Below are positions 1,963-25,288 of a stretch of DNA of 40,309 nucleotides, piece by piece. The stretch covers positions 1 to 40,309 of the forward strand of contig DRMV01000006.1 of NCBI GenBank assembly GCA_011322445.1, given 5' to 3'. The translations under genes were made by a program, and so were the position numbers. Position 1 is the stretch's first letter. Each line of letters starts with the position of its first letter. Below the pieces are notes generated by a model. The model was not told the DNA's origin and did no database searches. It was given only the letters and a program-made list of their open reading frames with translations. Source of the DNA: Chloroflexota bacterium (GTDB taxonomy: Bacteria > Chloroflexota > Anaerolineae > Anaerolineales > DRMV01).

Positions 1963-3762
1963 ATGCCTATGTTTTCCCCTTTGACGCTGACCTTGATCAT
2001 CACCGCTTTGGCGGCCATCGTGCTCATTAGTGGCAAAGTGCGTCCCGATTTGGTGGGCTTGATGGTGGCGCTGAGCCTGGCTTTGACGGGGGTTTTGCCG
2101 TTGAAAAGCGCTTTGGGGGGCTTTTCGAGCGATGTGGTTTTTGTTTTACTTTCCATCTTTATCCTTACCAAAGGGCTGGAAAACACCGGCGTCACCGCGT
2201 GGCTGGGAGAGCGGCTGGCGCGGTTGGGCAGCGGTTCAGAAGGCCGTTTGGTGGGCGTGACGATGGTGGCTTCGGCGGTGCTTTCCCTTTTTATGAATAC
2301 GGTGGCCGCAGCGGCGGTGCTTTTGCCGCCCGTGCTTGCCATTACCCGCCGTCGGCGCGATGTGGCCCCTTCGCGGGTGCTTATCCCGCTGGCCTATGCC
2401 ACGTTGTTGGGCGGTACGGCCACCTTGCTGACCACTGCCAACCTGGTGACCAGCGCGTCGCTGGCGGCGCACGGGTTGAAGCCTTATGGGTTGCTCGATT
2501 TTCTGCCGGTGGGCCTGCCGGTGACGGCCGCGGGCTTGCTTTTCATGTTGCTGGTGGGGCGGCGGTTGTTGCCACGCTACCCTGCCGAGCCCGGCGGCGA
2601 GGCCCTCGCCGACCTGGTGGAAGCCTATCGCCTCCGGGAGGGCTTGCATGCTTTCCGGGTTGCGCCTGATTCCCCCCTGGTGGGGCGGCCCGCCCGCAAG
2701 CCGCGCACGGCAACCGATGCCGGCCTGACGCCGGTGGGGCTGCTGGTAGGGGGGCGCATTGCTTTTGCCGACCGCCTGCCGCCTGAGCGCCGTTTGCGCC
2801 CTGGTGATATTCTCGTGGTTGTGGGCACCAGCCCGCCGGATGTGCTGGCGCACCTGGGCCTGGAGCCGTGGGATGCGCCCGACCTGTACGACATTTTCCG
2901 CACCCAGGCGGTGCTGGTGGAACTGGCGCTCAACCCGCGCGGGAATGCCGCCGGTAAGACGCCACAATCGTTGCAACTTTATGCCCGCTATGGGCTGCGT
3001 ATTCTGGCCGTGCGCCGCGGTTCAGAGGTGCTGGAGCACAATCTCTATACCCTGCCGCTGCGCCAGGGGGATGCGTTGTTGGCTTTGATTCCCGCGGAAA
3101 ACGAGCCGCACCTGCGGGACGATGCCGATTTCGTGGTGTTGAGTGTGCATCGCGGAGAAGGGGGCAGCGTGGGCTGGCGGGGCTTTTTGGCGATTGCTTT
3201 GCTGGTGGCGGCGCTGGTGCCGGCGGCGCTGGGGTGGGCGCCGTTGGCGCTGACCACGCTTTCGGCGGCCACGCTGATGATGTTGGTGGGTATTGTGCCG
3301 CCGCCGCAGGCTTATCGGGTCATTCCGTGGCAGGTGCTGTTTCTCATCGGCGGGATGATTCCGTTGGGCGTTGCCATGCGCCAAACGGGGGCGGCGACCT
3401 TCCTGAGCCGTCAAATGCTGCTGCCGCTGGAGCACGCGCCGGGGTGGGCCATTGCGGCGGCCTTTCTGCTGCTGACGGCTTTGCTCGCGCAGGTGACCAG
3501 CGGGCAGGTGGCGGCACTGTTGCTGGCCCCCCTGGCGATTGCCGCTGCCGAAAGTTATGGCCTGCCGCCACGCGGGCTGGGCATGGCGGTGGCTGTGGGG
3601 GCTTCCTTCGCCTTTTTGCTGCCGACCGGCCACCCCGTCAACCTGCTGGTCATGCAGCCAGGGCGTTACAAACCGGCCGATTACCTCAAGGTGGGGCTGC
3701 CGCTGTTGCTGGTGGTTACGCCTGTGGCGGTGGTGGCGCTGCAATGGTTCTGGCTGCGGTGA
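1963..3762 (+). CDS. SLC13/DASS-type permease with two RCK_C-like domains
   Basis: The 599-aa membrane protein has an N-terminal block of hydrophobic helices (about residues 5-205), a soluble centre (about 215-400) and a C-terminal membrane block (about 405-598). The centre looks like two TrkA-C (RCK_C) units, each carrying the typical 'LRPGD/LRQGD' turn (RRLRPGDILVVVG and PLRQGDALLALI). This layout is standard for the large SLC13-type branch of sodium-coupled anion transporters (sulfate, dicarboxylate or similar). The repeated loop motifs MNTVAAAAVLLPP and TGHPVNLLV are in the positions of the paired SNT-like re-entrant loops. Substrate cannot be read from sequence. A second Met lies two codons downstream, so the exact start is uncertain. 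Confidence 0.85.
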   Translation: MPMFSPLTLTLIITALAAIVLISGKVRPDLVGLMVALSLALTGVLPLKSALGGFSSDVVFVLLSIFILTKGLENTGVTAWLGERLARLGSGSEGRLVGVTMVASAVLSLFMNTVAAAAVLLPPVLAITRRRRDVAPSRVLIPLAYATLLGGTATLLTTANLVTSASLAAHGLKPYGLLDFLPVGLPVTAAGLLFMLLVGRRLLPRYPAEPGGEALADLVEAYRLREGLHAFRVAPDSPLVGRPARKPRTATDAGLTPVGLLVGGRIAFADRLPPERRLRPGDILVVVGTSPPDVLAHLGLEPWDAPDLYDIFRTQAVLVELALNPRGNAAGKTPQSLQLYARYGLRILAVRRGSEVLEHNLYTLPLRQGDALLALIPAENEPHLRDDADFVVLSVHRGEGGSVGWRGFLAIALLVAALVPAALGWAPLALTTLSAATLMMLVGIVPPPQAYRVIPWQVLFLIGGMIPLGVAMRQTGAATFLSRQMLLPLEHAPGWAIAAAFLLLTALLAQVTSGQVAALLLAPLAIAAAESYGLPPRGLGMAVAVGASFAFLLPTGHPVNLLVMQPGRYKPADYLKVGLPLLLVVTPVAVVALQWFWLR

Positions 3763-3777
3763 GGCCTGTATTCCGCC

Positions 3778-3806
3778 TTGACAGCAACGGGGGGAAAGGG
3801 TAGCAT
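3778..3806 (+). promoter_or_regulatory. Sigma-70-type promoter for the phosphatidyltransferase-lgt-ABC operon
   Basis: A perfect -35 TTGACA (3778-3783) is followed after 17 bp by TAGCAT (3801-3806, 4/6 match to the -10). It lies in the only sizeable gap upstream of five closely packed plus-strand genes. Confidence 0.6.
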
Positions 3807-3852
3807 ACGGCTATCTTGCACCGGGCGGCATTGACCGCCGGGGAGGTGTTTT

Positions 3853-4485
3853 GTGTCTGTGCCCCAACCATTACCGCAACCTCAAACTTTTACCGACCGG
3901 ATGCGCGTGCGTTTCAAAGGGGTGTTGGATGCCGTGGGCGGGTTTTTCAATCGCCTGGGTGTGCACCCCAATGCGATGACCGTGACCGGCGTGGTGGGCA
4001 ATGCTGTGGCGGCTGTGCTGCTGGCGCAAGGCCGCATTGTGGTAGGAGGGCTGGTGGTGCTCGCGATGGGCGCGTTCGATGCCCTCGATGGCACGATGGC
4101 GCGCTTGCGCGGTGGCGGCACGGCGTGGGGGGCTTTCCTCGATTCGGTGGGCGACCGCTATTCCGAATTGTTGCTGTTTGGCGGGCTGGCCTATTTCTAC
4201 GCTGCCCGCGGTGATTTGCTGGGAATGTCGCTGGCGTATGCTGCCGCAGCGGGGGCGGTGTTGGTTTCCTATACCCGCGCTCGCGCGGAGGCCCTGGGGT
4301 GGGAGGTCAAGGTCGGTTTGCTGACCCGCTTCGAGCGTTACCTGGTGCTGGCCCCTGCTTTGGTGCTCAACCTGCCGCTGATCGGCGTGGGGTTGATTGC
4401 CGTTGGCGCGAATCTGACCGCCTTCCAGCGGATTTTCTTCGCTCACCGGTTGGCGGTGGCTTCACAAACCCAAGACGAGGCATAG
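3853..4485 (+). CDS. CDP-alcohol phosphatidyltransferase family protein
   Basis: The 210-aa integral membrane enzyme carries the complete family signature DG-x2-AR-x8-G-x3-D-x3-D (DGTMARLRGGGTAWGAFLD, then SVGD) at about residues 79-101. This motif binds the metal and the CDP group. Hydrophobic segments follow (around LLLFGGLAYFYAARGDLLG, AYAAAAGAVLVSYT, and VLAPALVLNLPLIGVGLIAV). The family transfers a phosphatidyl group from CDP-diacylglycerol (or a related donor) to an alcohol to make membrane phospholipids. The acceptor (glycerol-3-phosphate, inositol phosphate or other) cannot be decided here. The GTG start at 3853 is chosen because GGGAGGT lies 6 nt upstream. It is the first gene of an operon with lgt, which is consistent with membrane biogenesis. 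Confidence 0.88.
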   Translation: MSVPQPLPQPQTFTDRMRVRFKGVLDAVGGFFNRLGVHPNAMTVTGVVGNAVAAVLLAQGRIVVGGLVVLAMGAFDALDGTMARLRGGGTAWGAFLDSVGDRYSELLLFGGLAYFYAARGDLLGMSLAYAAAAGAVLVSYTRARAEALGWEVKVGLLTRFERYLVLAPALVLNLPLIGVGLIAVGANLTAFQRIFFAHRLAVASQTQDEA

Positions 4486-4489
4486 TGTT

Positions 4490-5329
4490 ATGGTTTTTCA
4501 TATTGGCCCTATCCCGATTCACGTGTACGGCCTGTTGCTGATGCTCGGCGCGCTCGCGGGCGCGTGGCTGGCGACGGTGGAAGCCAGGCGCCGCGGCCAG
4601 GACCCTGAAATTATTTGGGATGCGTTGACATGGGTGTTGATTGGCGGTGTCATTGGGGCGCGCCTGTGGCATGTTTTTACCCCGCCTGAATCAATGGTCG
4701 AGATGGGCATTACCACCCATTATTACCTCACCCACCCGCTGGCGATGATTGCCGTTTGGCGAGGGGGGCTGGGCATTCCGGGCGCGGTGATGGGTGGGTT
4801 GCTGGCGTTTTGGCTGTTTGCCCGCCGCCGCAAACTCAATTTTGCCCTTTGGCTGGATATTGCCGCCCCCGGCATTGCTTTGGGGCAAGCGATTGGTCGG
4901 TGGGGCAATTATGTCAATCAGGAACTCTACGGCGCGCCGACCCATTTGCCTTGGGCCATTTACATTGACCCGGCGCACCGTTTGCCCCAGTTTGCCGACC
5001 AGGCTTATTACCATCCGCTTTTCTTTTATGAGTTCCTTTGGAATTTGCTCAACATGGGTGTGCTGCTTTATGCTGCCCGCAAGTGGAGCGACCGGTTGTG
5101 CACCGGCGATATTTTCTTGATGTATCTCATCATTTACCCTGTGGGGCGCTTTTTCCTGGAATTCCTGCGGCTGGACCCGGCTGAAGTGGGCGGTCTGGAT
5201 ATCAACCAGATGCTGATGGCGGTGGTGGCGCTGAGCGCGGCTGCTGCGCTGGCCTGGCGGCATCGGCCGGGGGCGGCTGCGCCGCAACCAGCGGAAACGC
5301 CCGGCAAACGCCGCCGACGGCGTAAGTAG
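4490..5329 (+). CDS. lgt: Prolipoprotein diacylglyceryl transferase
   Basis: The 279-aa multi-pass membrane protein has the Lgt signature GRWGNYVNQELYG (family pattern G-R-x-G-N-[FY]-x-N-x-E) at about residues 142-154 and the upstream motif AVWRGGLGIPGAVMGG. The length is normal. Lgt moves the diacylglyceryl group from phosphatidylglycerol to the lipobox cysteine of prolipoproteins at the cytoplasmic membrane. Three lipoproteins in this window (9554-11041, 11019-12569 and 38456-39505) are plausible substrates. It starts 4 nt after the stop of the phosphatidyltransferase gene, so the two are cotranscribed. The C-terminal tail is basic (KRRRRRK), probably a cytoplasmic end. Confidence 0.95.
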   Translation: MVFHIGPIPIHVYGLLLMLGALAGAWLATVEARRRGQDPEIIWDALTWVLIGGVIGARLWHVFTPPESMVEMGITTHYYLTHPLAMIAVWRGGLGIPGAVMGGLLAFWLFARRRKLNFALWLDIAAPGIALGQAIGRWGNYVNQELYGAPTHLPWAIYIDPAHRLPQFADQAYYHPLFFYEFLWNLLNMGVLLYAARKWSDRLCTGDIFLMYLIIYPVGRFFLEFLRLDPAEVGGLDINQMLMAVVALSAAAALAWRHRPGAAAPQPAETPGKRRRRRK

Positions 5330-5339
5330 GCTTGGCGCC

Positions 5340-6260
5340 ATGATTGTTGCAGAGCATTTGGGTAAGCGTTTCGATGATTTTTGGGCAGTAAGCGATTTCC
5401 ACTTGAGCGTGGCGGCGGGGGAAGTGGTGGCTGTGCTCGGCCCCAATGGTGCCGGGAAGACCACAACCGTACGGATGTTGGCTTCCCTGCTGCGTCCCAC
5501 GCGTGGGCGGGCAGTGGTGGCGGGTTTCGATACGGCGACGCAGGGCCTGGAGGTGCGCCGCCATGTGGGGGTGCTGACCGAACAACACGGGTTGTATACC
5601 CGGATGCCGGCGTATGAATATCTGGAAGTCTTTGGCAAAATCTATGGTCTGGAAGGCGACCTGTTGGCGCGCCGAATTGCCCATTGGATGGACTATTTTG
5701 GGCTTTGGGATTTCCGCACCTGGCGCATTGGCACGTATTCCAAGGGAATGCGGCAGAAACTGGCGCTGGCGCGCGCTTTGCTGCATGAGCCGCCGGTGCT
5801 TTTGCTCGATGAGCCTACCTCCGCGATGGATCCCGAAAGCGCGCGGCTGGTGCGGGAAGCCATTCGCGGTTTGCGCTCTCAGGACCGGGCGATTTTGCTC
5901 TGCACCCACAACCTTTACGAAGCCGAGGTGCTGGCCGACCGCATTGCCATTATGCAGGCGGGGCGGGTGGTCACCACGGGCACGCCGCAGACACTCAAGG
6001 ACCGCTGGTTGGGCCCTCCGGTATTCGCGGTGATGCTTTCTCGCCCTGTGGAACACCCCTTGCCTGCTTTCCCTCCCGCGGTGGAGGTGGTGCGGGCTGA
6101 AGGGCGTACGTTGGAAATTCGCTCGCCCCAATGGGAGCGCGACAACGCCGCCGTGGTGGCGGCGCTGGTGGCTGCGGGGTATGGGGTGCTTCAAGTGGCT
6201 GAGGTGCCCCGTAGTTTGGAGCAGGTTTACCTCAAGGTGATGGCGCATGAACAGGCATGA
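5340..6260 (+). CDS. ABC transporter ATP-binding protein (ABC-2 export type)
   Basis: The 306-aa protein has Walker A GPNGAGKTT (about residues 34-42), a degenerate ABC signature YSKGMRQKL (about 134-142) and Walker B VLLLDEPTSAMDPES. The YSKGM form of the signature and a C-terminal extension of about 90 residues after the nucleotide-binding domain are typical of ATPases paired with ABC-2 permeases (NatA/CcmA-like). Its last 14 bp overlap the start of the permease gene, so the two are coupled and probably form one complex. The transported substrate is unknown. No strong ribosome-binding site precedes the ATG at 5340, and translation may depend on read-through from lgt. Confidence 0.9.
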   Translation: MIVAEHLGKRFDDFWAVSDFHLSVAAGEVVAVLGPNGAGKTTTVRMLASLLRPTRGRAVVAGFDTATQGLEVRRHVGVLTEQHGLYTRMPAYEYLEVFGKIYGLEGDLLARRIAHWMDYFGLWDFRTWRIGTYSKGMRQKLALARALLHEPPVLLLDEPTSAMDPESARLVREAIRGLRSQDRAILLCTHNLYEAEVLADRIAIMQAGRVVTTGTPQTLKDRWLGPPVFAVMLSRPVEHPLPAFPPAVEVVRAEGRTLEIRSPQWERDNAAVVAALVAAGYGVLQVAEVPRSLEQVYLKVMAHEQA

Positions 6261-7689
6261 GTGGAAGCGTTGGTGGCATGGCACGCTGTTGATTACCCGT
6301 CGCGAGGTGCGCGATCAGCTCCGCGACTGGCGCATTGTGCTGCCGATTGTCGGGCTGACGCTCTTCTTCCCGTTGTTGATGAATGCCACCGCCAAGGCGA
6401 TGGTGAATTTTGTGGCCCGTTACGGGGCGGATATTGTGGCCGAGCGGTTGTTTCCTTTTTTGATGATGGTGGTGGGGTTTTTCCCTGCTTCGATTTCGCT
6501 GGTGGTGGCTCTGGAAAGTTTTGCCGGTGAGCGTGAGCGCCGCACGATGGAGCCCTTGCTGGTGGCACCCCTTACCGATGCGCAGTTGTATGTTGGGAAA
6601 TTGCTGGCCGTGCTGTTTTTGCCGCTCACCGTGAGTTATGTCGGCGTGGGGGTGTATGTGGTCGGGCTGCATTTGGTCACAGGGTGGTGGCCTTCTGCCA
6701 TTTTGCTGGGCATGGTGTTGTTGCTCACCACGGTGCAGGCAGTGATGATGGTTTCCGCGGCGGTGGTGATTTCCACGCAGGCCACTTCGGTGCGGGCGGC
6801 TAACTTGCTGGCTTCGCTGGTCATTGTGCCGGTAGCGCTGTTGTTGCAGGGGGAAAGTGTGATGATGTTCTATCAGCATTATGCGGTGCTGTGGGCCACG
6901 GCCGCGGCTGTGCTGCTGGTGGCTGTGCTGACATCGCGTATGGGGTTGGCGCATTTCAACCGCGAGAACCTGTTGGGGCGGGAAGTGGACATTCTCAACA
7001 TCCGTTGGATGTGGCGGGTGTTTTGGAAGGCGTTTCGGGGCGAGGCCGCGGGCGTGCGCGCGTGGTACCGCGAGGTGTGGCGGGATGTCAAATCTTTGGG
7101 GTGGCTGATGGTGGTGGCGTTTGCGCTGATGGGCGGCGCGGCGGCGCTGGGTGTGTGGCTGGCAAGGGATGTGCCTGCCCAGGCGCTTTCGGCTCCTTCC
7201 CCAATGGAGTTTCGGGCCACGCTGCGTTCAGGGGTATGGAATGGCTTGACGGTGGTAGGATGGCACGGCAGCCTGTTCGTGTGGTGGCACAACATTCGCG
7301 CCATGTTGTTGGCCGCTGTGGGCGCAGGGTTTACCTTTGGGGTGTTGGGTATCTTGATCCCTTTGCTGCCTTATGGGTTGATCGGCGGGGCGTTGGCTTT
7401 GTTTGCCCGGTCGGGGTTGTTTTCGCCGTGGACGGCTTTCGCTGTGATGGTGCTGCCGCATGGGGTGGTGGAAATTCCAGCCACGGCGCTGTTTGTGGCG
7501 GCGACGTTGCGCCTGGGGGCTTCGCTGGCTTCCCCCGCGCCGGGCGAGAGCCTGGGGGCTTTCTGGCTGCGGGCGTGGGCACGCTGGTGGCGGGTGTTCC
7601 TGGGGGTGGTGGTGCCGCTGATGGCGGTGGCTGCGGTGCTGGAAACCCATCTGACGCCTCTCATGGTGAGCCGCTATTTGTTGCATTGA
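6247..7689 (+). CDS. ABC-2 permease fused to a SpoIIM (DUF95) domain
   Basis: The 480-aa membrane protein has two parts. Residues about 1-240 look like an ABC-2 permease: an N-terminal cytoplasmic start (TRREVRDQLRDWRIVLPIVG), then six hydrophobic segments with the family-typical loop ESFAGERERRTMEPLLVAPL. Residues about 255-480 match the stage II sporulation protein M (DUF95) pattern: WWHNIRAMLLAAVGAGFTFG, a run of Gly-rich helices, the hallmark LPHGVVEIPATALF, and a C-terminal helix ending ETHLTPLMV. SpoIIM acts with SpoIID/P in peptidoglycan remodelling in spore formers, but SpoIIM-like domains are widespread in non-sporulating bacteria with unknown role. The overlap with the ATPase gene implies a single transporter complex. 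Confidence 0.85.
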   Translation: MNRHEWKRWWHGTLLITRREVRDQLRDWRIVLPIVGLTLFFPLLMNATAKAMVNFVARYGADIVAERLFPFLMMVVGFFPASISLVVALESFAGERERRTMEPLLVAPLTDAQLYVGKLLAVLFLPLTVSYVGVGVYVVGLHLVTGWWPSAILLGMVLLLTTVQAVMMVSAAVVISTQATSVRAANLLASLVIVPVALLLQGESVMMFYQHYAVLWATAAAVLLVAVLTSRMGLAHFNRENLLGREVDILNIRWMWRVFWKAFRGEAAGVRAWYREVWRDVKSLGWLMVVAFALMGGAAALGVWLARDVPAQALSAPSPMEFRATLRSGVWNGLTVVGWHGSLFVWWHNIRAMLLAAVGAGFTFGVLGILIPLLPYGLIGGALALFARSGLFSPWTAFAVMVLPHGVVEIPATALFVAATLRLGASLASPAPGESLGAFWLRAWARWWRVFLGVVVPLMAVAAVLETHLTPLMVSRYLLH

Positions 7690-7750
7690 TGCCGCTTGTG
7701 GGGGTCTTGCGGCGTGGAGGGCAATGCCGCTTTGTGCCAGAACTGTTTGG

Positions 7751-7785
7751 GAAAACAAAAACGCCCGTCCATGCGACGGGCGTTT
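7751..7785 (-). terminator. Intrinsic terminator of the DUF4013 gene
   Basis: An 11-bp perfect stem (7759-7769 with 7775-7785, AAACGCCCGTC) has a 5-nt loop and is followed on the minus strand by TTGTTTTC. It may also stop the convergent plus-strand operon ending at 7689, though the T-run favours the minus strand. Confidence 0.85.
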
Positions 7786-7809
7786 GGGCTTGCTGGGGTT
7801 GGACGGTGT

Positions 7810-8505
7810 TTAGCCGTTCCAGTCGGCGGGCGCGCTGGGCGCTGGCGGCGTGCTGTTGGCGGTCACGATGCCACCGGTGGCCTCGGCGTATGCCTGGCCG
7901 TAAAGGTGGCCTTCCACCGCTGCAGCATAGGGGTAGGTGATGATGATACCAATGAGGCACGCAATGAGGCCCAGCGGGGCAACCAACCCGGCCACCAATC
8001 CCCCTAAGAAGACGATGACGTAGGCGCCCAGGTTGTCTTTCACCATGCTGATGGCTTTGCCAAAGGCCAGCCCTTCGCTAATGCTGTCGGCGGCCATGGT
8101 GAAGCGCATCAGGGCTGCGGGCATCACGAAGCCCATGAAGATGCTGTAAATGAAGACCACGCAGCCGATGAGCAAGTTGACCAGTGTGGCCGCGGTGCTC
8201 AGGTTGTTGCTGTTCTGGCCCATCATTGAAAGCGTTAAGGAGCAGGCTTCTAAGATGATGAGGGGCAGCGCGTAAACCAGCGCCACAACCAGCCCTTTCA
8301 GGCCGCGGACGAAGTAAGTGCCGAAGTCATCCCAGTCGGGCAGCACTTCGGCCTCGCCCCCAGCGACGCGGCGGCCGATTTCCAGCATCCACCCCAAGAC
8401 GGCCAGGTTGACGATGGGGATGAGCACGATGATGCCGGCGATGGCAAGTTTCTTTAGCCAATCTTTGTCTTCAAAAACGAATGAAAAGGCCTTTCCGAAA
8501 TCCAT
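7810..8505 (-). CDS. DUF4013 membrane protein
   Basis: The 231-aa protein is predominantly hydrophobic, with about five or six membrane segments (IAGIIVLIPIVNLAVLGWML, GLVVALVYALPLIILEACSL, LLIGCVVFIYSIFMGFVM, and AYVIVFLGGLVAGLVAPLG followed by LIACLIGIIITYPYAAA). The pattern FxDxDWxxKxxIxGxxxLIPIxN, GWMLEIGRRV and the final ITYPYAAAVEGHLYGQAY tail fit the DUF4013 family, which has no known function. The start at 8505 is preferred over an upstream in-frame ATG at 8538 because GGAGGA sits 6 nt before it. The gene is monocistronic with its own terminator. Confidence 0.8.
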   Translation of the reverse strand: MDFGKAFSFVFEDKDWLKKLAIAGIIVLIPIVNLAVLGWMLEIGRRVAGGEAEVLPDWDDFGTYFVRGLKGLVVALVYALPLIILEACSLTLSMMGQNSNNLSTAATLVNLLIGCVVFIYSIFMGFVMPAALMRFTMAADSISEGLAFGKAISMVKDNLGAYVIVFLGGLVAGLVAPLGLIACLIGIIITYPYAAAVEGHLYGQAYAEATGGIVTANSTPPAPSAPADWNG

Positions 8506-8558
8506 CTGACTCCTCCAGGTTGGTGATACATGCTGCATGATGCGATTAAGACACTTTT

Positions 8559-9553: not shown

Positions 9554-11041
9554 TTAGTGCTGCGATTTGATTTCGGCCGCGGGAATGCCCTGATCGCTGG
9601 CAATGACCAGCCCCTCGCCACGCCGCAGGTCGCCTTTGTAGGCGATGCCGGTGGTTTCGGGCACCCAGCCTTCCAGGTTGAAGGGGATAACGCCGTAGGC
9701 GATCATCCATTCGCCGTTGTATTTGCGGGCGATGTGAACATGCGTGCCGGTCGTGCGCCCGCCCTCGCATGAGGGGTGGCCGATGGGGTCGCCAGCTTTA
9801 AGGCGGAGGCCCTGGGGGACGCGACCGTTATCGGCCAGGTGGAAGTAGAAAACATCCCAACCGGTGCGCTCGTCGCCGTCGCCGTCTAAATCGAGCATCA
9901 CTTCGGCGTACGTCGAGCGTGCCACAACACCGTCGGCGACGGCCACAGCCCATTTGTCGGTTGACTGGCAGCCGGAAACCCCCAGCGGGGCGAAATCCAG
10001 AGCGGCGAATGGCTGCCCCAGCCCCCAGCCGGTGTGCGGCGCGCCGGTGAACACCCAGATTTCGCCCTTTGAGAAGGGCAGTTTCATCGGCGGCTGATGC
10101 AGGTTGGCGGGAATGTGCGGTGGCGGCGGGTTTTTCCACGGATCGCCGAAGAGAAAGGCATAGAGCCGGAAGAACCCGCGCGGCGAGACCGCTTCGCGGT
10201 ACATATTGGCGGGCAGCATTTGGGCAAAATAGTTTTGCAACGCTACCGTGGCTGCATTTTGCCACGGGTCGGGGCGCACTTCGGTGCCGTCGCGCAGCAC
10301 GAAAAGCGGCAAAGCGCCCAGTTTCCAGCCATAATAGCCGTTGTTGAGCAGGTTGGCGGCATAATTGAGTTGCAGAAACAGGCCGTGGTGTTCGGGGTCT
10401 TTGTAGCCCAGGGGGTAGCGCATTTGGTCCGGCGGCAGAGATGGCCTGGTGAGCGCGCCGGCCTGGTATTCCAGCAGGGCCAGCAGCAGACGCGGGTCGA
10501 TGCTATACATTCTGCTGATGTAATCGACAATATTGGCACCGTCGCGCGTGGCATTGGCGGCGTATTCCTGGTAATGGGCCAGCCAGCCGTTGGGGTAATG
10601 CGCCAGGAAGGCGCGCGTGTTGAAACCCTGTGCCGCCGGGCCGTTGACGAAGAGCGCATCAGGCAGAATTTTGAACGGCGTGCCCCAGAACGGCGCGTAA
10701 TAAATGGGCACTTTCATGGGAAAGCCCGGCGGCAAGGTGGTGATGTCGCGCGGGAGGTTGGGGTTGGCATCCAGAATTTGCTGCACTGTGGTGTTGAAAT
10801 GCGCCGCAATCGCAGGGAGGGTGTCACCGTCCTGGGCGGTGTAATCCACCAGGGTGCCGGGAGCGTATTCGGGGCGGGTAGGCAGCGGGGTGCCTTCCAG
10901 CGTCGGGGTGGGGGTGGCCGCGGCAGGGGAAGCCGCCGCGGGCGCGCGGTTTCCCGAGGCAGCAGGGCTACACGCGGCCAGGAGCGCCAATGCCCCCAGC
11001 CAGAAGGCTGCTGTCAGGTTACGGAGTTTGATCATCATCAC
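9554..11041 (-). CDS. LysM / M23-like lipoprotein, copy 2
   Basis: The 495-aa protein has a lipoprotein signal (hydrophobic helix ending LALLAAC, lipobox Cys at about 24), a Thr/Pro linker, and a LysM-like domain (VDYTAQDGDTLPAIAAHFNT at about 66-85, ending near FPMKVP). A middle region follows (about 115-310) with SIDPRLLLALLEYQAG resembling a muramidase-like helix bundle. The C-terminal domain (about 325-460) resembles peptidase M23, keeping FAALDFAP, VADGVVARS, VFYFHLADNG and THVHIARK. The first zinc-ligand histidine expected four residues before Asp349 is Phe345, while His434 and His436 are kept. It is probably an envelope peptidoglycan-binding protein. Activity is doubtful. The start overlaps the preceding paralog by 23 bp, and three successive Met codons (11041, 11038, 11035) leave the exact start open. 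Confidence 0.85.
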   Translation of the reverse strand: MMMIKLRNLTAAFWLGALALLAACSPAASGNRAPAAASPAAATPTPTLEGTPLPTRPEYAPGTLVDYTAQDGDTLPAIAAHFNTTVQQILDANPNLPRDITTLPPGFPMKVPIYYAPFWGTPFKILPDALFVNGPAAQGFNTRAFLAHYPNGWLAHYQEYAANATRDGANIVDYISRMYSIDPRLLLALLEYQAGALTRPSLPPDQMRYPLGYKDPEHHGLFLQLNYAANLLNNGYYGWKLGALPLFVLRDGTEVRPDPWQNAATVALQNYFAQMLPANMYREAVSPRGFFRLYAFLFGDPWKNPPPPHIPANLHQPPMKLPFSKGEIWVFTGAPHTGWGLGQPFAALDFAPLGVSGCQSTDKWAVAVADGVVARSTYAEVMLDLDGDGDERTGWDVFYFHLADNGRVPQGLRLKAGDPIGHPSCEGGRTTGTHVHIARKYNGEWMIAYGVIPFNLEGWVPETTGIAYKGDLRRGEGLVIASDQGIPAAEIKSQH

Positions 11042-12569
11042 TGGGGCGGAAGATTTCCTGTTTGGGGCTGCCGCAGGGGCAGGCTTTGATGGTCTTGCCG
11101 TCTTTGGTCAGGGTGCCGTCGTAGGGCTTTTCGCCCGCGTGGGGCACCCAGCCATCCATCACGAAGGGCACCGGGCCGTCGGCGGCGATCCACTCGCCGT
11201 TGTATTTGCGGGCGATGTGGACGTGTGTGCCGGTCGCGTGCCCCCCTTCGCAGGAAGGGTGGCCGATGCGGTCGCCAACGTGCAGGTGGGTGCCCGCCGC
11301 GACGCGGCCATCGTCGGCGATGTGCAGGTAAAGAATGTCCCACCCGGTCTGTTCCTTGCCATCGCCGTCCAGGTCGAGCATGACAACACCGTGGCCGGAA
11401 CGCGCGACAACGCCTGAGGCCACGGCCACCACCCATTTGCGGGAAACCTCACAGCCCCCGTGGGTAGAGCCAGGGGCGAAATCCAGGGCTGCGCGCGCGC
11501 CGTCGTGTTCCCAGGCCCCATGAGGGCCGCCCGTAAAGTACCACACGCTGCCTTTTTGGAAAGGCAGAGTCAGCGGCGGTTGGGTAAGGTCAGGGGGGTA
11601 AAGGGGCTCGACGGTGTAAGCGCGTGCCCACGGATCACCGAACATCTTGGTGTAAAAGGCAGGGAAGCCGCTGTTTTCGTCCAGCGCGCGCGCCCATTCG
11701 GCGCGATTGGCGCTCACCTGGGCGAAGAAGTAGGCCAGAGCAACGGTGCCTGCGTTGAGGTCGGGGGCGAGACGAGCGGTGGTGCCATCGCGAAAGCGGA
11801 TGGTGGTGAGCAGGCCTTCCCGCCAGCCGTAGTAGCCAATGGAAAGCTGATTGACGGCCCAGGCCAGTTGGTGGTAGAGGGGGGCGTGGCTGTCGGTCTT
11901 CGTATAGCCGAGAGGGTGGTCTTCCTGAAAGGGGTTGGTAGGGTATTCGTAAACCCAGTGCCCTTCGTATTCCAGCAGCGCCAGAAGCAACCGAGGGTTG
12001 ATGGAATTGTTGAGGGCCACTTCGGCCAGGATGTCGGCGCCTGCCGTCATGCCTGTGCTTTGCAGGTATTCGCGATAAGTGCTCAAGTAGCCGCCGGCCT
12101 GTTCCACGTAGGCGCGGACGTTGAAATCAATGGCAGAGGGCGAATAGACAACCTCGCTATCGGGCAGCAAGTGCGTGTTGGCGGTGGTGTGAGCCAGCCG
12201 CCGCGGAATGAGCAGCATGGTGTTGGGGGAAAGCAACCCGGTGGGCGAAAGGGGCACGTTGGCGCGAATTTCCCTGGCAGCCACCCCAAAGCGCACAGCC
12301 AGGGCGGGCAAGGTGTCGCCCGCCTGGGTGTAGTAAATGTAAGGAGGCTGATGGGCTAGGTCGGGCGTGGGGGAAGGTGTTGGGGAGGGGGGCAAGGCGG
12401 TGGGTGGAGGGGTAGGGGTGGCTTGTGGCGTGACCGTGGGAATGTACAGCGGCACGGGCGTGGCCGAAGGCGCGGCGTTCCACGGCTGGGCGCCCGCGAC
12501 GACCGCGCTGCAGGCCGTGAGCATCAGCCCCAGGGTTAAGAAAAGCCACCACCGCGCTGGTTTTCGCAT
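11019..12569 (-). CDS. LysM / M23-like lipoprotein, copy 1
   Basis: The 516-aa protein is a paralog of the gene immediately downstream, with the same order: lipoprotein signal with lipobox LTAC (Cys at about 20), a Pro/Thr-rich linker, a LysM-like domain (YYTQAGDTLPALAVRFGVA), a helical middle with SINPRLLLALLEYEG, and an M23-like C-terminal domain (ARAALDFAPG, VASGVVARSGHG, ILYLHIADDG, THVHIARK). As in copy 2, the His expected four residues before the Asp ligand (Asp363) is replaced, here by Arg359, while His449 and His451 remain. The segment DLDGDGKEQTGWD resembles a calcium-binding DxDxDG loop and is shared by both copies. The role is probably in cell-wall binding or remodelling outside the membrane. 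Confidence 0.85.
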   Translation of the reverse strand: MRKPARWWLFLTLGLMLTACSAVVAGAQPWNAAPSATPVPLYIPTVTPQATPTPPPTALPPSPTPSPTPDLAHQPPYIYYTQAGDTLPALAVRFGVAAREIRANVPLSPTGLLSPNTMLLIPRRLAHTTANTHLLPDSEVVYSPSAIDFNVRAYVEQAGGYLSTYREYLQSTGMTAGADILAEVALNNSINPRLLLALLEYEGHWVYEYPTNPFQEDHPLGYTKTDSHAPLYHQLAWAVNQLSIGYYGWREGLLTTIRFRDGTTARLAPDLNAGTVALAYFFAQVSANRAEWARALDENSGFPAFYTKMFGDPWARAYTVEPLYPPDLTQPPLTLPFQKGSVWYFTGGPHGAWEHDGARAALDFAPGSTHGGCEVSRKWVVAVASGVVARSGHGVVMLDLDGDGKEQTGWDILYLHIADDGRVAAGTHLHVGDRIGHPSCEGGHATGTHVHIARKYNGEWIAADGPVPFVMDGWVPHAGEKPYDGTLTKDGKTIKACPCGSPKQEIFRPSDDDQTP

Positions 12570-12575
12570 GGGGGA

Positions 12576-12581
12576 ATTATA
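12576..12581 (-). promoter_or_regulatory. -10 element giving a near-leaderless transcript
   Basis: A perfect TATAAT on the minus strand ends 6 nt before the ATG at 12569, so transcription would begin at or next to the start codon. No ribosome-binding site fits between them. No convincing -35 is seen. Confidence 0.45.
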
Positions 12582-12659
12582 CCGTTAACTACTTTTCTCT
12601 TTGGGGCTGATAGCGAGATCACGGGCTTTTGCCTGGCATGCCTTCTGCACCTTGCCCTG

Positions 12660-12668
12660 TGTTATACT
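12660..12668 (+). promoter_or_regulatory. Extended -10 promoter of the LCP gene
   Basis: TGT-TATACT (12660-12668) is an extended -10 with 5/6 match, about 30 bp before the start codon at 12699. The -35 is not recognisable. Confidence 0.45.
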
Positions 12669-12698
12669 CTCGACGATGCTGTGGTAAGGAATCATTTT

Positions 12699-14114
12699 AT
12701 GCCTCAACGCGCTTTTCGACGTCGTGCGACGCCCTTGTTTTTGGCCTACGCTTTGGTCGCGGTGGCGTGCCTTTCGTTTACCGCCGCGGCGGGGGTGCTG
12801 ATTCATCGCTTTGGCGGCGCGGCCACGCCGCCCCCCACGTCTCAGGCCACCAGTTTGCCTTCCCTGGTGCTGCCCCCGCCCTGGAACGGTAAGGAGCGCG
12901 TCAACGTCCTCATTTTGGGGGTAGACGACCGCCCGTGGGACCCTACCTGGGGACCGCCCCGCTCCGACACGGTCATTTTGGCGACCCTGGACCCCAAAAC
13001 CATGACGGCCGGCGCGATTTCCCTGCCCCGCGATCTGTGGGTCAACCTGCCGGGCATTGGTGAGCGCAAGCTCACTCAGGCTTATGCGTTGGGGGAGATG
13101 GTGTATGGTAAAGGCCAGGGCCCGCGCCTGGTGGCAGAGGTAGTCAGCGATTTGCTCCATGTGCCCGTGCATCACTATGTGGTCGTCAACTTCCGGGCTT
13201 TCATTACCCTGGTGGATGCCGTACATGGGGTGAAAATTGAGGTGCCCCAACGGATGGCGCTGGACGTTTTCACCGCCGACGGGCGGCGTTACGATTATCC
13301 CCTGTATCCCGGCGTGCAGGTGCTCAACGGTGAACTGGCGCTGGCCTATGCCCGCAATCGCTCGGTGGGGCACGACGGCGATTTTGGCCGTATGCGCCGC
13401 CAGCAGCAAGTGCTGGAAGGCGTGCTCCAACGCCTCAAAGACCCGCGCGTGCTGGCCGAACTCGCGCTCAAAGCGCCTTCCCTGGCCGACCAGCTGAGCG
13501 ACAATTTGCATACCGATATTTCCGTAAGCGACGCGCTCCGCCTGGCGCGGCTGGCTGCCGAAGTGCCCTGGCAAAATGTGCACCTGGTGGTCATTGACCA
13601 GCGGGAAGCCACCGCCACGACCAAATGGGAAAACGGCGTGCCGGTGTATGCCCTGGTGCCCAACGAAGCGAAGTTGCTTGCCGCCCGCGACCAGGTTTTC
13701 TCGCCGCCTCCGCCGCCGACCCCCACGCCCTTGCCTCCCGCCACGGCCACCGCGGCCGCGTTGCCGCCCACCCCCACGGTGACGGCTGTTGAGGCCCTGC
13801 AAGAAGCCCCCCGCTTGCTGGTCGAAAACGGCACCGACGTGAACGGCCTGGCGTGCCGCACTGCCGCGCTTTTGCGGGTGCAAGGGTTTGACCGAATCGA
13901 TACCCGCAACGCCGACCGGCATTACGCTCACACCATGTTGGTGGAATACACCGCCAGGCCGAAAACATTAGCCTTTTTGCAGCAACGTTTTGCCGTGTCG
14001 CCTTCCCGCGTGCAATATCGCACCAGCGCCGACCCGCCTGCCGATATCGTCATCATTTTGGGGAGCGACTGGGCCGCGAGCGGGCAGGTAGACGGCGTGA
14101 CCTGCTCCCCCTGA
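12699..14114 (+). CDS. LytR-CpsA-Psr (LCP) family protein with LytR_C domain
   Basis: The 471-aa protein has an N-terminal membrane anchor (LFLAYALVAVACLSFTAAAG), then an LCP domain with VLILGVDDR, PRSDTVILATLDP, ISLPRDLWV, and the C-terminal family motif GHDGDFGRMRRQQQVL. A Pro/Thr linker (about 345-370) leads to a LytR_C domain (RLLVENGTDVNGLACRTAAL). LCP enzymes attach undecaprenyl-linked glycopolymers to peptidoglycan or other acceptors on the outer face of the membrane. The exact polymer here is unknown. The start at 12699 is chosen because AAGGA lies 8 nt upstream. An in-frame GTG at 12681 has no such site. It is followed after 18 nt by recD2. Confidence 0.9.
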   Translation: MPQRAFRRRATPLFLAYALVAVACLSFTAAAGVLIHRFGGAATPPPTSQATSLPSLVLPPPWNGKERVNVLILGVDDRPWDPTWGPPRSDTVILATLDPKTMTAGAISLPRDLWVNLPGIGERKLTQAYALGEMVYGKGQGPRLVAEVVSDLLHVPVHHYVVVNFRAFITLVDAVHGVKIEVPQRMALDVFTADGRRYDYPLYPGVQVLNGELALAYARNRSVGHDGDFGRMRRQQQVLEGVLQRLKDPRVLAELALKAPSLADQLSDNLHTDISVSDALRLARLAAEVPWQNVHLVVIDQREATATTKWENGVPVYALVPNEAKLLAARDQVFSPPPPPTPTPLPPATATAAALPPTPTVTAVEALQEAPRLLVENGTDVNGLACRTAALLRVQGFDRIDTRNADRHYAHTMLVEYTARPKTLAFLQQRFAVSPSRVQYRTSADPPADIVIILGSDWAASGQVDGVTCSP

Positions 14115-14132
14115 GGGGCGCGGCGTTTCCCC

Positions 14133-16328
14133 ATGCCGACCCTGCGAGGCACCGTCGAGCGCATCACTTACTACAATGCCGAGAACGGCTACACCGTGCT
14201 GCGGCTGAGGCCGGCGCGTCCCATCGGCGGGGTGGGGCGGGATGGCCTGGTGACGGTGGTGGGCAACCTGCCCGAAGTTTCTCCGGGGGAACATTTGGAA
14301 CTCACCGGCCAGTGGAAGACCCACAGCCGCTACGGGCGGCAATTTGTTGCTGAAACCTGCCGCCAGACCCTGCCCGCCACTGCCGAGGGCATTCGCCGCT
14401 ACCTCGGTTCGGGGCTGGTGAAAGGCATTGGGCCGGGGCTGGCTGAGCGCATTGTGGGGGTTTTTGGCGAGCGCACTCTCGAAATCCTCGACCGCCAGCC
14501 GCATCGCCTGCAGGAGGTCCCCGGCATTGGCCCCAAGCGCGCCGCCCGCCTGCGGGAAGCCTGGGAAGCCCAGAAGCACATCCGCCACATCATGCTCTTT
14601 TTGCACGAACACGGCATCACCACCGGTTTGGCCGTCAAAATTTACAAAGCCTACGGCGACGAAGCCCTGGAAATCGTGCAAAACGACCCCTATCGCCTGG
14701 CTGCCGATATCCACGGCGTGGGCTTCAAAACCGCCGATAAGGTTGCCCGCGCCCTGGGGCTGCCTGAAGACCATCCTTCCCGCTTGCAGGCCGGGTTGGT
14801 GTATGCGCTCAACAAAGCCGCCGAAGAGGGGCACACTTTTTTGCCCCGCGAGGCTTTGCTGGCCCAGGCAGCGGAACTCCTCGGCCAGCCGGCCGAGGCG
14901 CTGGAAGCCGCGCTGGCGACGTTGGAAGCCGAAGGTCGGGTGGTGACGGAAGCGGTGCCCCTGCCGCGTGTGCGCCTGAGCGGCGAGCGTGGGGCGGCGG
15001 AAACCGAAGCGGCCTATCTGACCACGGGCGTGTACCTGCCCGCGTTCCACACCGCCGAAACTGGCGTTGCCGAGCGCTTGCGCGCCTTGCTGGAAGCCCC
15101 CAGCCGCCTGTCGCAGCGCGCACACCCGCCCTTGCCTGCCGACCTGACAGCCCAGCAGGCGCGCGCTGTCCAGAGGGCGCTGGCTTCCCCGGTCAGCGTG
15201 CTTACCGGTGGCCCCGGCACCGGCAAGACCACCACGGTGCGCGCGTTGATCGGCGTGCTGGAGGCCTGGCACGTGGCCTATGCGTTGGCGGCGCCCACGG
15301 GGCGCGCCGCTCAGCGGCTGGCCGAGGCCACTGGTCGCGAAGCATCCACCATCCATCGCCTGCTGGGCTACAAGCCCGGCCAGGGCTTCAAGCATTCCCC
15401 GGCCGAGCCGCTGCCGCTGGCCTTCCTGGTGGTGGATGAGGCTTCGATGCTGGACACCGTGCTGGCTTATCATCTTTTGGGCGCGCTGGCCCCCGGCACG
15501 CATTTGCTGCTGGTGGGCGATGTGGACCAACTGCCCTCGGTGGGGGCGGGCGATGTGTTGCGGGAAATCATCGCGCATCCGCTTGTGCCTGCCACCCGGC
15601 TGGACACCATTTTCCGGCAGGCGGCGGGGTCGTTAATCATCACCAACGCGCACCGCATCAATCGGGGCGAAATGCCCCTTTTCCCGAAAGATGCAAGCGA
15701 CTTTTTCCTTTTTCCGGCGCGTGACGCGCAGGAGGCCGCCGACTGGGTGGTGAAAGTGGTCACCGAGCGCATCCCGCGGCGGTTTGGCCTGCACGCCCCG
15801 CGGGAAATTCAGGTCATTGCCCCCATGTATCGCGGCCCGGCGGGGGTGCACGCGTTGAATGCCCGCTTACAGGCTGCCCTCAACCCACCTGCGGCTGGCA
15901 AAGCCGAGCGGGCGTTGATGGGGCAGGTCTTCCGGGTGGGCGATTGGGTGATGCAAACCCGCAACAACTACGACTACGATGTTTTCAACGGCGACTTGGG
16001 CGAAGTGGTCGCCATCGACGCCGTGAGGCAGCGCCTGGTGGTGGATTTCGGCGGGCATCGGGTGGCCTACGACTGGAGCGAAGCCGACCAGTTGGTGCTG
16101 GCTTATGCCATCTCAGTGCACAAGGCGCAGGGGGCAGAGTTCCCCGCGGTGGTGGTGCCGATGGTGACGCAGCATTATGTGATGTTGCAGCGCAAATTGC
16201 TTTACACCGCGGTGACCCGCTCGAGGCAGTTGTGTGTGCTGGTGGGGCAAAAGCGGGCCATTGCGCTGGCAGTGCGGAACGAGAAAGCGCGCGTGCGCTA
16301 CACGGCTTTGCGGCATTTTCTGGCATAG
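14133..16328 (+). CDS. recD2: RecD2-type ATP-dependent 5'-3' DNA helicase
   Basis: The 731-aa protein has an N-terminal OB-like region (GTVERITYYNAENGYTVLRL), helix-hairpin-helix motifs (LVKGIGPGLAERIVG and LQEVPGIGPKRAARL), Walker A GGPGTGKTTT (about residues 356-365), Walker B LVVDEASMLD (about 432-441), motif QLPSVGAGDVL, and a C-terminal UvrD_C-like domain ending with VHKAQGAEF and YTAVTRSRQL. This is the standard order and length of RecD2, an SF1B helicase found in bacteria without RecBC and linked to repair and replication-fork maintenance. It lies just behind the LCP gene and is probably cotranscribed, without an obvious functional link. Confidence 0.95.
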   Translation: MPTLRGTVERITYYNAENGYTVLRLRPARPIGGVGRDGLVTVVGNLPEVSPGEHLELTGQWKTHSRYGRQFVAETCRQTLPATAEGIRRYLGSGLVKGIGPGLAERIVGVFGERTLEILDRQPHRLQEVPGIGPKRAARLREAWEAQKHIRHIMLFLHEHGITTGLAVKIYKAYGDEALEIVQNDPYRLAADIHGVGFKTADKVARALGLPEDHPSRLQAGLVYALNKAAEEGHTFLPREALLAQAAELLGQPAEALEAALATLEAEGRVVTEAVPLPRVRLSGERGAAETEAAYLTTGVYLPAFHTAETGVAERLRALLEAPSRLSQRAHPPLPADLTAQQARAVQRALASPVSVLTGGPGTGKTTTVRALIGVLEAWHVAYALAAPTGRAAQRLAEATGREASTIHRLLGYKPGQGFKHSPAEPLPLAFLVVDEASMLDTVLAYHLLGALAPGTHLLLVGDVDQLPSVGAGDVLREIIAHPLVPATRLDTIFRQAAGSLIITNAHRINRGEMPLFPKDASDFFLFPARDAQEAADWVVKVVTERIPRRFGLHAPREIQVIAPMYRGPAGVHALNARLQAALNPPAAGKAERALMGQVFRVGDWVMQTRNNYDYDVFNGDLGEVVAIDAVRQRLVVDFGGHRVAYDWSEADQLVLAYAISVHKAQGAEFPAVVVPMVTQHYVMLQRKLLYTAVTRSRQLCVLVGQKRAIALAVRNEKARVRYTALRHFLA

Positions 16329-18267: not shown

Positions 18268-18499
18268 GCAGTTGTGGGGGGGCAGTGGGTCCGGCGTATG
18301 GCCGGAAAAGTCTCTTCCGTCCCGTGTGGCAAGCGAAGTGATACGACCGCCCGGCCTCGACATTGCCGGTTCAGGCGGCCCTTGCAACTTGCATCCTGCA
18401 ACTTGCACCCTGCACCCTGCACCCTGCACCCTGCATCCTGCACCCTTTGACCCTTCCCGGCTTCTGCCGGATAATTCTTGAACCAGAGAGGTTAGACTT
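18268..18499 (+). promoter_or_regulatory. Long structured 5' leader of the RNase J gene
   Basis: Between the predicted transcription start and the ATG lie a hairpin CCGGC/GCCGG (18291-18305), a two-part hairpin CCGCC-CGGC / GCCG-GGCGG (18347-18378), then the 7-bp TGCA array (18383-18445) and the ribosome-binding site GAGAGG. No convincing small gene is present. Long leaders that let a ribonuclease act on its own mRNA are known for RNase E. Applying this to RNase J here is inference. Confidence 0.4.
18383..18445 (+). repeat. Heptamer tandem array TGCAnnn, copy 1 (9 units)
   Basis: TGCA occurs nine times at exactly 7-bp spacing (starts at 18383, 18390, 18397, 18404, 18411, 18418, 18425, 18432, 18439). 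The three variable bases are mostly CCC, with ACT or TCC in some units. It lies in the RNase J leader, about 50 bp before the start codon. Confidence 0.95.
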
Positions 18500-25179: not shown

Positions 25180-25181
25180 GA

Positions 25182-25263
25182 TGCAAGATGCAAGATGCAA
25201 GTTGCACCCTGCACCCTGCAACCTGCAACCTGCTTGCATCCTGCACCTTGCAACCCGCTTGCA
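25182..25263 (+). repeat. Heptamer tandem array TGCAnnn, copy 2
   Basis: TGCA occurs seven times at exact 7-bp spacing from 25182 to 25224. After a degenerate unit (TGCT at 25231) and a phase slip, it recurs at 25235, 25242, 25249 and 25260. The array begins 2 bp after the kinase stop codon and ends about 40 bp before ahcY. The GATGCAAG units at the left end can pair with CTTGCATC further right, so the transcript can fold into a hairpin. Confidence 0.93.
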
Positions 25264-25288
25264 TCCCGCATCCTGCCACCCCCACTGA

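What the first reader, a model, noticed from the sequence alone, without database searches (positions are those of the whole stretch)
6247..7689. ABC-2 permease fused to a SpoIIM domain
One chain joins a permease half to a SpoIIM/DUF95 half, including the hallmark PHGVVEIPA motif, and is coupled to its own ATPase. SpoIIM in spore formers belongs to a peptidoglycan-remodelling complex. The fusion suggests that SpoIIM-like domains in non-sporulating bacteria work as part of, or are gated by, an ATP-driven ABC machine.
Basis: partly seen in the sequence, partly recalled or inferred. Interest (0 to 1): 0.55.

Follow-up and report, generated by a model that had tools for sequence, protein, structure and literature searches.

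The report
Exporter permease fused to SpoIIM domain
One gene joins the membrane half of an ATP-driven exporter to a sporulation-type membrane domain (SpoIIM); the join is widely kept in the bacterial phylum Chloroflexota, and it suggests that SpoIIM can act as a built-in part of an export pump rather than as a cell-wall remodeller.

Summary
Window 6247-7689 (+) encodes one 480-residue protein: residues 11-242 are a complete ABC-2 permease half (NosY-like, Z 20.6) and residues 291-471 match the whole SpoIIM profile (E 9.7e-16). Folded alone, the SpoIIM half is confident (pLDDT 93.8) and matches no ABC-2 chain. At least 64 of 301 Chloroflexota genomes carry the fusion, 26 of them with two ABC-2 halves and one SpoIIM (hand counts). 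The ATPase gene is immediately upstream in 75 of 76 testable loci and 19 of 20 mostly more distant ones. Circular-bacteriocin plasmids carry SpoIIM, ABC ATPase and ABC-2 permease as adjacent separate genes (4 of 4 annotated records). Best reading: SpoIIM is a built-in accessory membrane domain of an ABC-2 exporter for a hydrophobic envelope substrate, still unknown. The peptidoglycan link is not supported: no SpoIIP or SpoIID match in this genome. That SpoIIM works with an ABC ATPase is already in print for circular bacteriocins; the fusion itself turned up in none of my paper searches. Stand-alone SpoIIM genes in the phylum are not next to ABC genes (0 of 18 examined), so the idea does not cover all SpoIIM proteins.

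The parts
6247..7689 (+). ABC-2 permease half fused to SpoIIM domain, 480 aa
6277..6972 (+). residues 11-242: ABC-2 (NosY-like) transmembrane half; residues 77-118 hold 18 of the 51 invariant columns of the 59-member alignment
   Evidence: VIA Z 20.6, rmsd 2.9, 218 aligned to NosY 7o0z_E; Pfam ABC2_membrane_2; invariants
7117..7659 (+). residues 291-471: SpoIIM domain, full profile
7456..7482 (+). PHGVVEIPA motif, residues 404-412 (P404, H405, E409 invariant in 59 of 59)
5340..6260 (+). dedicated ABC ATPase (DrrA/NatA type), overlaps the fusion gene by 14 bases
4490..5329 (+). prolipoprotein diacylglyceryl transferase (lgt); conserved neighbour in Anaerolineae only
   Evidence: Pfam LGT E 4.5e-68; 68 of 71 loci; 0 of 20 wider regions, mostly from more distant genomes
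3853..4485 (+). CDP-alcohol phosphatidyltransferase; conserved neighbour in Anaerolineae
   Evidence: Pfam CDP-OH_P_transf E 2.4e-12; 62 of 70 loci; 2 of 20 wider regions

Best explanation
The gene pair makes a two-gene ABC exporter. Two copies of the fusion protein and two copies of the ATPase assemble into one pump; the ABC-2 halves form the translocation path and the SpoIIM domains are permanently attached accessory membrane domains that flank it and help to receive, hold or release a hydrophobic envelope substrate. In other Chloroflexota two ABC-2 halves and one SpoIIM lie on one chain, so one SpoIIM per pump seems to be enough. Shown by sequence and model: the fusion, both folds, the ATPase partner and its motifs, wide conservation, and the same three parts as separate neighbours in circular-bacteriocin operons. 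Inferred: direction of transport (export), dimer assembly, and the accessory role of SpoIIM. Weakest: the substrate; the neighbourhood in Anaerolineae (FtsK, phosphatidyltransferase, Lgt) hints at a lipid, lipoprotein or membrane-active peptide.
For: Pfam and fold results; 59 of 59 members with both domains; fusion in at least 64 of 301 phylum genomes (hand count from the listing) and in 42 of 61 genomes of the order at E <= 1e-30, 38 of them aligned past residue 472, three cut by contig ends, one frame-broken; ATPase adjacent in 75 of 76 and 19 of 20 loci, mostly overlapping or within a few tens of bases; tandem ABC2-ABC2-SpoIIM in 26 genomes (hand count; ten examples); separate adjacent SpoIIM, ATPase and ABC-2 genes in 4 of 4 annotated circular-bacteriocin plasmids with Pfam confirmation in one. 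From the literature, as cited in PMC6131525 and PMC7132975 (passages): loss of the DUF95 protein LcyD makes mature leucocyclicin Q accumulate inside the cell, that is, a SpoIIM protein is needed for export.
Against: In one genus the tandem fusion has no ABC ATPase match nearby (L154 in 18 kb, L035 and L036 in under 5 kb; the gene upstream in L154 carries a P-loop but gives no ABC match). The bacteriocin ABC-2 permease belongs to another Pfam family (ABC2_membrane_5) and shows no BLAST similarity to the fusion, so the pairing there may be an independent one. No complex was modelled; direction, stoichiometry and substrate are untested. Stand-alone SpoIIM genes in Chloroflexota do not neighbour ABC genes (0 of 18).
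Confidence: 0.58

Rival explanations
1. SpoIIM here is a scaffold for cell-wall hydrolases, as in the SpoIID-SpoIIM-SpoIIP complex, and the ABC module gates those hydrolases much as FtsEX does (FtsEX recalled).
For: The one well-studied SpoIIM protein does this in Bacillus (PMC5898192, passages). An FtsK gene lies upstream in 54 of 66 loci (identified as FtsK in one representative). A LysM protein with a weak M23 match is encoded 1.9 kb downstream on the other strand in the window, but its linkage was not tested.
Against: No SpoIIP match in this genome and in 0 of 61 order genomes; no SpoIID match in this genome and 7 of 61 in the order (both families ring in Bacillus subtilis in the same searches). 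The permease half matches NosY-like ABC-2 chains; no FtsX chain is among the 50 rows listed.
Confidence: 0.1
2. The pump exports, or confers immunity to, a small hydrophobic peptide, as the SpoIIM/ATPase/ABC-2 sets of circular-bacteriocin clusters do.
For: Same three parts; SpoIIM needed for leucocyclicin Q export and linked to immunity (as cited in PMC6131525, PMC7132975, PMC5695211, passages).
Against: No circular-bacteriocin precursor match in this genome: PF12173 none, while the same search rings in both plasmid controls; PF09221 none, without any positive control. The gene is a single copy in 42 of 42 positive order genomes and, in close relatives, sits in a conserved neighbourhood, unlike a mobile bacteriocin cluster.
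Confidence: 0.17
3. The fusion is a convenience of expression: SpoIIM and the exporter are made together and do separate jobs in the membrane.
For: No invariant residue lies in the stretch 251-290 between the two halves, so the join itself is not strongly conserved in sequence.
Against: The join is kept over the phylum, in single and tandem forms; split forms are rare in the sample (G046 and G015) and each may be a frameshift.
Confidence: 0.1

Closest known systems
Circular-bacteriocin export/immunity sets (gassericin A, plantaricyclin A, plantacyclin B21AG)
   Same: SpoIIM (PF01944), an ABC ATPase and an ABC-2 permease encoded side by side
   Different: Three separate small proteins (157, 227, 214 aa in plantacyclin); permease of another Pfam family (ABC2_membrane_5); a bacteriocin gene is adjacent; here no precursor match
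NosFY/NosDFY ABC transporter (NosY, PDB 7o0z)
   Same: Permease half, Z 20.6, rmsd 2.9, 218 residues aligned, 18% identity
   Different: NosY is a 264-275 residue chain without a SpoIIM domain; it is found with NosD, NosL and NosZ (titles)
Bacillus subtilis SpoIIM of the SpoIIDMP engulfment complex
   Same: Same Pfam family
   Different: No ABC partner is mentioned for it in the passages read; its partners SpoIIP and SpoIID have no match in this genome
SpoIIM of the MoxR-DUF58-SpoIIM-RDD neighbourhood
   Same: Same Pfam family; RDD and DUF58 neighbours also seen in Chloroflexota (L143)
   Different: Longer stand-alone protein beside a MoxR AAA+ ATPase and a DUF58 protein, no ABC genes adjacent
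ABC permease-CPBP protease fusion (NCBIfam NF041647)
   Same: An ABC-2 permease with a second membrane domain on the same chain; weak match to the permease part (36.3 bits against a cut-off of 435)
   Different: The second domain is a CPBP protease, not SpoIIM

Membership tests
SpoIIM (PF01944) | Score above the curated cut-off over the whole profile | tested here: met
   58.6 bits against 26.9, profile 1-163 of 163
SpoIIM (PF01944) | P-H-G-x-x-E motif (called a hallmark in the finding) | tested here: met
   Residues 404-409; P, H and E in 59 of 59, G in 48 and A in 11 of 59; the same motif, LLPHGIIEI, in the plantacyclin SpoIIM
ABC-2 type exporter | ABC-2 transmembrane sequence and fold | tested here: met
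   Pfam PF12679 and PF01061 over cut-off; NosY Z 20.6
ABC-2 type exporter | Dedicated ATPase with Walker A, signature, Walker B, D-loop, H-loop | tested here: met
ABC-2 type exporter | ATP-driven transport out of the cytoplasm | not testable with these tools
   needs an assay
SpoIID-SpoIIM-SpoIIP wall-remodelling complex | SpoIIP partner in the genome | tested here: not met
   0 matches in a genome 96% complete; 0 of 61 in the order; Bacillus subtilis rings
SpoIID-SpoIIM-SpoIIP wall-remodelling complex | SpoIID partner in the genome | tested here: not met
   0 matches in this genome; 7 of 61 in the order
Circular-bacteriocin export set | SpoIIM + ABC ATPase + ABC-2 permease encoded together | tested here: met
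Circular-bacteriocin export set | Circular-bacteriocin precursor gene | tested here: not met
   PF12173: none in this genome, rings in both plasmid controls; PF09221: none, no positive control; other precursor families not searched
   Pfam gives SpoIIM, not ABC-2; no ABC-2 chain with a meaningful score for the C-half model, but a family not listed by that tool is not excluded by it

The most novel reading that the evidence does not exclude
SpoIIM is at root a transport-associated membrane module: a flanking domain of ABC-2 exporters that handles amphipathic or lipid-linked substrates. In Anaerolineae it serves a housekeeping pump coupled to lipoprotein and phospholipid synthesis; the sporulation protein of Bacillus would be a derived member that kept the membrane-handling fold and lost the pump.
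Probability: 0.17. Interest if true: 0.68.

Novelty: new variant of a known kind. Interest (0 to 1): 0.43.

Why it matters
SpoIIM (DUF95) is widespread in bacteria and archaea (PMC5898192, passages) and its biochemical role is unknown: PMC3533761 (passages) lists spoIIM among genes without activity or structural data, and my sequence and fold searches found no solved relative of this domain. A natural, widely kept fusion to a defined ABC-2 exporter with its own ATPase turns a vague 'membrane remodelling' label into a testable one: does SpoIIM change what an exporter binds or releases? The fusion removes doubt about the partner, and the tandem form fixes one SpoIIM per two permease halves.

Tried and rejected
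Triple fusion: open frames of 1122 and 646 codons at G313 and G310 looked as if they might hold ATPase, permease and SpoIIM on one chain; reading them showed the ATPase in another frame, so they are only long open frames.

Second permease domain: rejected by Pfam and by the lack of ABC-2 matches for the C-half model. For the C-half, 485 PDB chains were aligned and the best Z was 6.2, below the level the tool calls meaningful for helical bundles; this does not prove a new fold.

Sporulation: no SpoIIP or SpoIID match.

Phage or plasmid origin: no phage record matches; plasmid matches of the whole protein cover at most 26% of it, in its permease half; no PHROG match.

Lgt/phosphatidyltransferase as a universal partner: dropped, because in 20 wider regions LGT is found in 0 and the phosphatidyltransferase in 2. 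The downstream metallo-beta-lactamase gene is less constant (39 of 78).

First tally of neighbours required a gap above zero and so lost overlapping genes (ATPase 69 of 76); one search allows overlap and gives 75 of 76. One search counted any Walker A protein as ATPase; for L035 and L036 that was wrong.

Rosetta-stone survey beyond Chloroflexota: only possible in plasmids; 'of' in the genome search takes G handles only, and all mine are of the window's phylum. The genome-contig scan keeps the best 80 of 383 relatives, all titled as Chloroflexota or its lineages, so fusions elsewhere are not excluded. tblastn with the SpoIIM protein of L137 found no plasmid.

Literature for the fusion itself: the listings and the passages read show no paper that describes an ABC-2/SpoIIM fusion; subscription papers, preprints and domain-architecture databases could not be searched, and the architecture may well be listed in InterPro.

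Full report
What is there. Window 6247-7689 on the + strand is one open frame of 480 codons with an ATG start. Pfam finds SpoIIM over residues 291-471, the full length of the profile, at E 9.7e-16 and 58.6 bits against a cut-off of 26.9, and ABC2_membrane_2 over residues 16-194 at E 1.7e-11. The gene 5340-6260 ahead of it is an ABC ATPase (ABC_tran E 5.5e-29) and overlaps it by 14 bases; its Walker A (GPNGAGKT), signature (YSKGM), Walker B (VLLLDE), D-loop and a TH at the H-loop position are present. This is the only SpoIIM match in the genome, which is 2.63 Mb and 96% complete.

Is the C-half really SpoIIM. An AlphaFold2 model on a 59-member alignment has mean pLDDT 91.1 and pTM 0.86. The N-half aligns with NosY at Z 20.6, rmsd 2.9 over 218 residues (model 11-242), followed by CcmB, ABCA and ABCG chains. 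The whole-model search says little about the C-half, so residues 248-480 were folded alone (pLDDT 93.8, pTM 0.90). That model has no Foldseek match at E <= 0.001, and the best VIA score among 485 chains is Z 6.2, which the tool rates as no more than a common arrangement. So no solved relative of the SpoIIM half was found; a weak or missing match does not prove a new fold. In the alignment, 43 of 51 invariant columns lie in the ABC-2 half, 18 of them between residues 77 and 118, and 8 in the SpoIIM half: N349, P404, H405, E409, P457, A462, E466, P471; none lies in the stretch 251-290. An alignment with more distant members (A1, 20 sequences) keeps N349, P404 and E409 invariant; H405 is N in two of them.

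How widespread. Of 301 Chloroflexota genomes, 161 match the protein at E <= 0.001, many in the ABC-2 half only. Counting by hand from that listing, 56 genomes show one alignment that runs from the permease half to residue 438 or beyond, and 8 more show a separate SpoIIM alignment in the same open frame, so at least 64 of 301 carry the fusion; the list of matches was truncated. In 26 genomes (hand count) the frame holds two ABC-2 alignments as well: ABC2-ABC2-SpoIIM, 735-768 residues in the ten taken out. A tree of the ABC-2 halves groups most first halves together and most second halves together, near some single forms, with one pair of loci (L037, L039) placed apart; this fits duplication of the permease half within the family (no formal test). 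In the window's order 42 of 61 genomes match at E <= 1e-30, each with a single copy; 38 reach residue 472 or beyond, three stop at contig ends and one (G046) is broken by a frame change; 19 of 61 have none. A named scan returned 80 loci, all titled as Chloroflexota or its lineages, best 58% identical; it keeps only the best 80 of 383.

The partner. Among those 80 loci the ATPase lies directly upstream on the same strand in 75 of the 76 that extend far enough. In 20 wider regions, 17 of them from outside the window's class, it is adjacent in 19; the exception, L154, has a P-loop gene of another kind upstream and no ABC ATPase match, and its relatives L035 and L036 have no match either in the shorter stretches held. 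In Anaerolineae the order FtsK - phosphatidyltransferase - Lgt - ATPase - fusion is common: phosphatidyltransferase 62 of 70, Lgt 68 of 71, FtsK 54 of 66 (FtsK identified in one representative). The window keeps the phosphatidyltransferase and Lgt, with a CitMHS-type transporter ahead of them. In the 20 wider regions Lgt is absent and the phosphatidyltransferase present in 2, so only the ATPase is a constant partner.

Independent evidence for the pairing. Plasmids of Lactiplantibacillus and Lactobacillus carry, in order, a cyclic bacteriocin, SpoIIM, an ABC ATPase and an ABC-2 permease: 4 of 4 records annotated at that place, standing for two related systems; a fifth record has no annotation under the match, and a Geobacillus plasmid with a weaker match has only hypothetical and transposase genes around it. 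In plantacyclin B21AG Pfam confirms SpoIIM (E 4.3e-8), ABC_tran and ABC2_membrane_5 (E 8.7e-20). A profile comparison aligns its SpoIIM with the fusion's C-half at E 6.8e-8 over the LLPHGIIEI region and the last helix. Papers, read as passages: SpoIIM/DUF95 occurs in all described clusters (PMC6131525; PMC8534725); loss of the SpoIIM protein LcyD leaves mature leucocyclicin Q inside the cell (Mu 2014, not seen, as cited in PMC6131525 and PMC7132975); SpoIIM is proposed to act with the ABC protein as its membrane part (PMC7132975). The last idea is thus in print; in the gassericin-type clusters, however, an ABC-2 permease is present as well (also noted in PMC7452424, passages), and the fusion shows the two side by side in one chain. 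This argues for SpoIIM as an addition to the permease, not a replacement.

Evidence against a general rule. Of 18 stand-alone SpoIIM loci fetched from Chloroflexota (chosen by hand from the many), none has an ABC ATPase next to it; two have one more than 2 kb away. Neighbours that were identified include RDD and DUF58/vWA (L143), ClpC (L137), EF-G (L129), an M24 peptidase (L133) and an amino acid kinase (L141, L142). A Paracoccus plasmid shows MoxR-DUF58-SpoIIM-RDD, in line with PMC5898192 (passages), which predicts membrane remodelling for the family. So SpoIIM proteins come in at least two contexts and the ABC role may hold for one branch only.

Wall remodelling and bacteriocins. SpoIIP: none in this genome, 0 of 61 in the order; SpoIID: none in this genome, 7 of 61 in the order; both ring in Bacillus subtilis. 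The circular-bacteriocin family PF12173 has no match in this genome and rings in two plasmid controls; PF09221 has none either, without a control.

Mechanism. Most likely the pair forms an exporter of two ATPases and two fusion chains. ATP binding closes the ATPases and moves the ABC-2 halves through the segment around residues 77-118, the most conserved part of the protein and, by general knowledge of NatB/NosY-type permeases (recalled), the place of the coupling helix. SpoIIM, with about five further membrane helices and conserved polar residues (N349, H405, E409, E466), would lie against the pump and handle a hydrophobic substrate at the membrane surface. The tandem form, with one SpoIIM per two ABC-2 halves, suggests that one suffices. 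All of this paragraph is inference; no complex, direction or substrate was tested.

Verdict.

Noticed in passing
window 7810-8538 (-): DUF4013 membrane protein (Pfam E 6.2e-26), convergent with the fusion gene; a family of unknown function.
   Followed up: no
window 9554-15578 (-): A LysM protein with a weak M23 match and a lipobox-like N-terminus (9554-11041), followed in the same direction by three long frames (11019-12569, 12585-13931, 13968-15578) without a Pfam match at 1e-5.
   Followed up: partly
L154 (G230), fusion at about 8800: In one genus the tandem ABC2-ABC2-SpoIIM gene has no ABC ATPase match in 18 kb; the gene just upstream (7566-8156) starts with a P-loop (SGKTT) and may be a small GTPase.
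   Followed up: partly
L171 (Paracoccus aminovorans plasmid), 3717-7907: MoxR - DUF58 - SpoIIM - RDD gene row: the other, non-ABC context of SpoIIM.
   Followed up: no
L137 (Chloroflexota), 3847-7345 (-): A stand-alone SpoIIM gene of 258 aa directly after a ClpC-type AAA+ gene.
   Followed up: no
window 18383-18446 and 25178-25281: Short tandem arrays of similar heptamers (TGCACCC/TGCAACC type) in two places about 7 kb apart.
   Followed up: no
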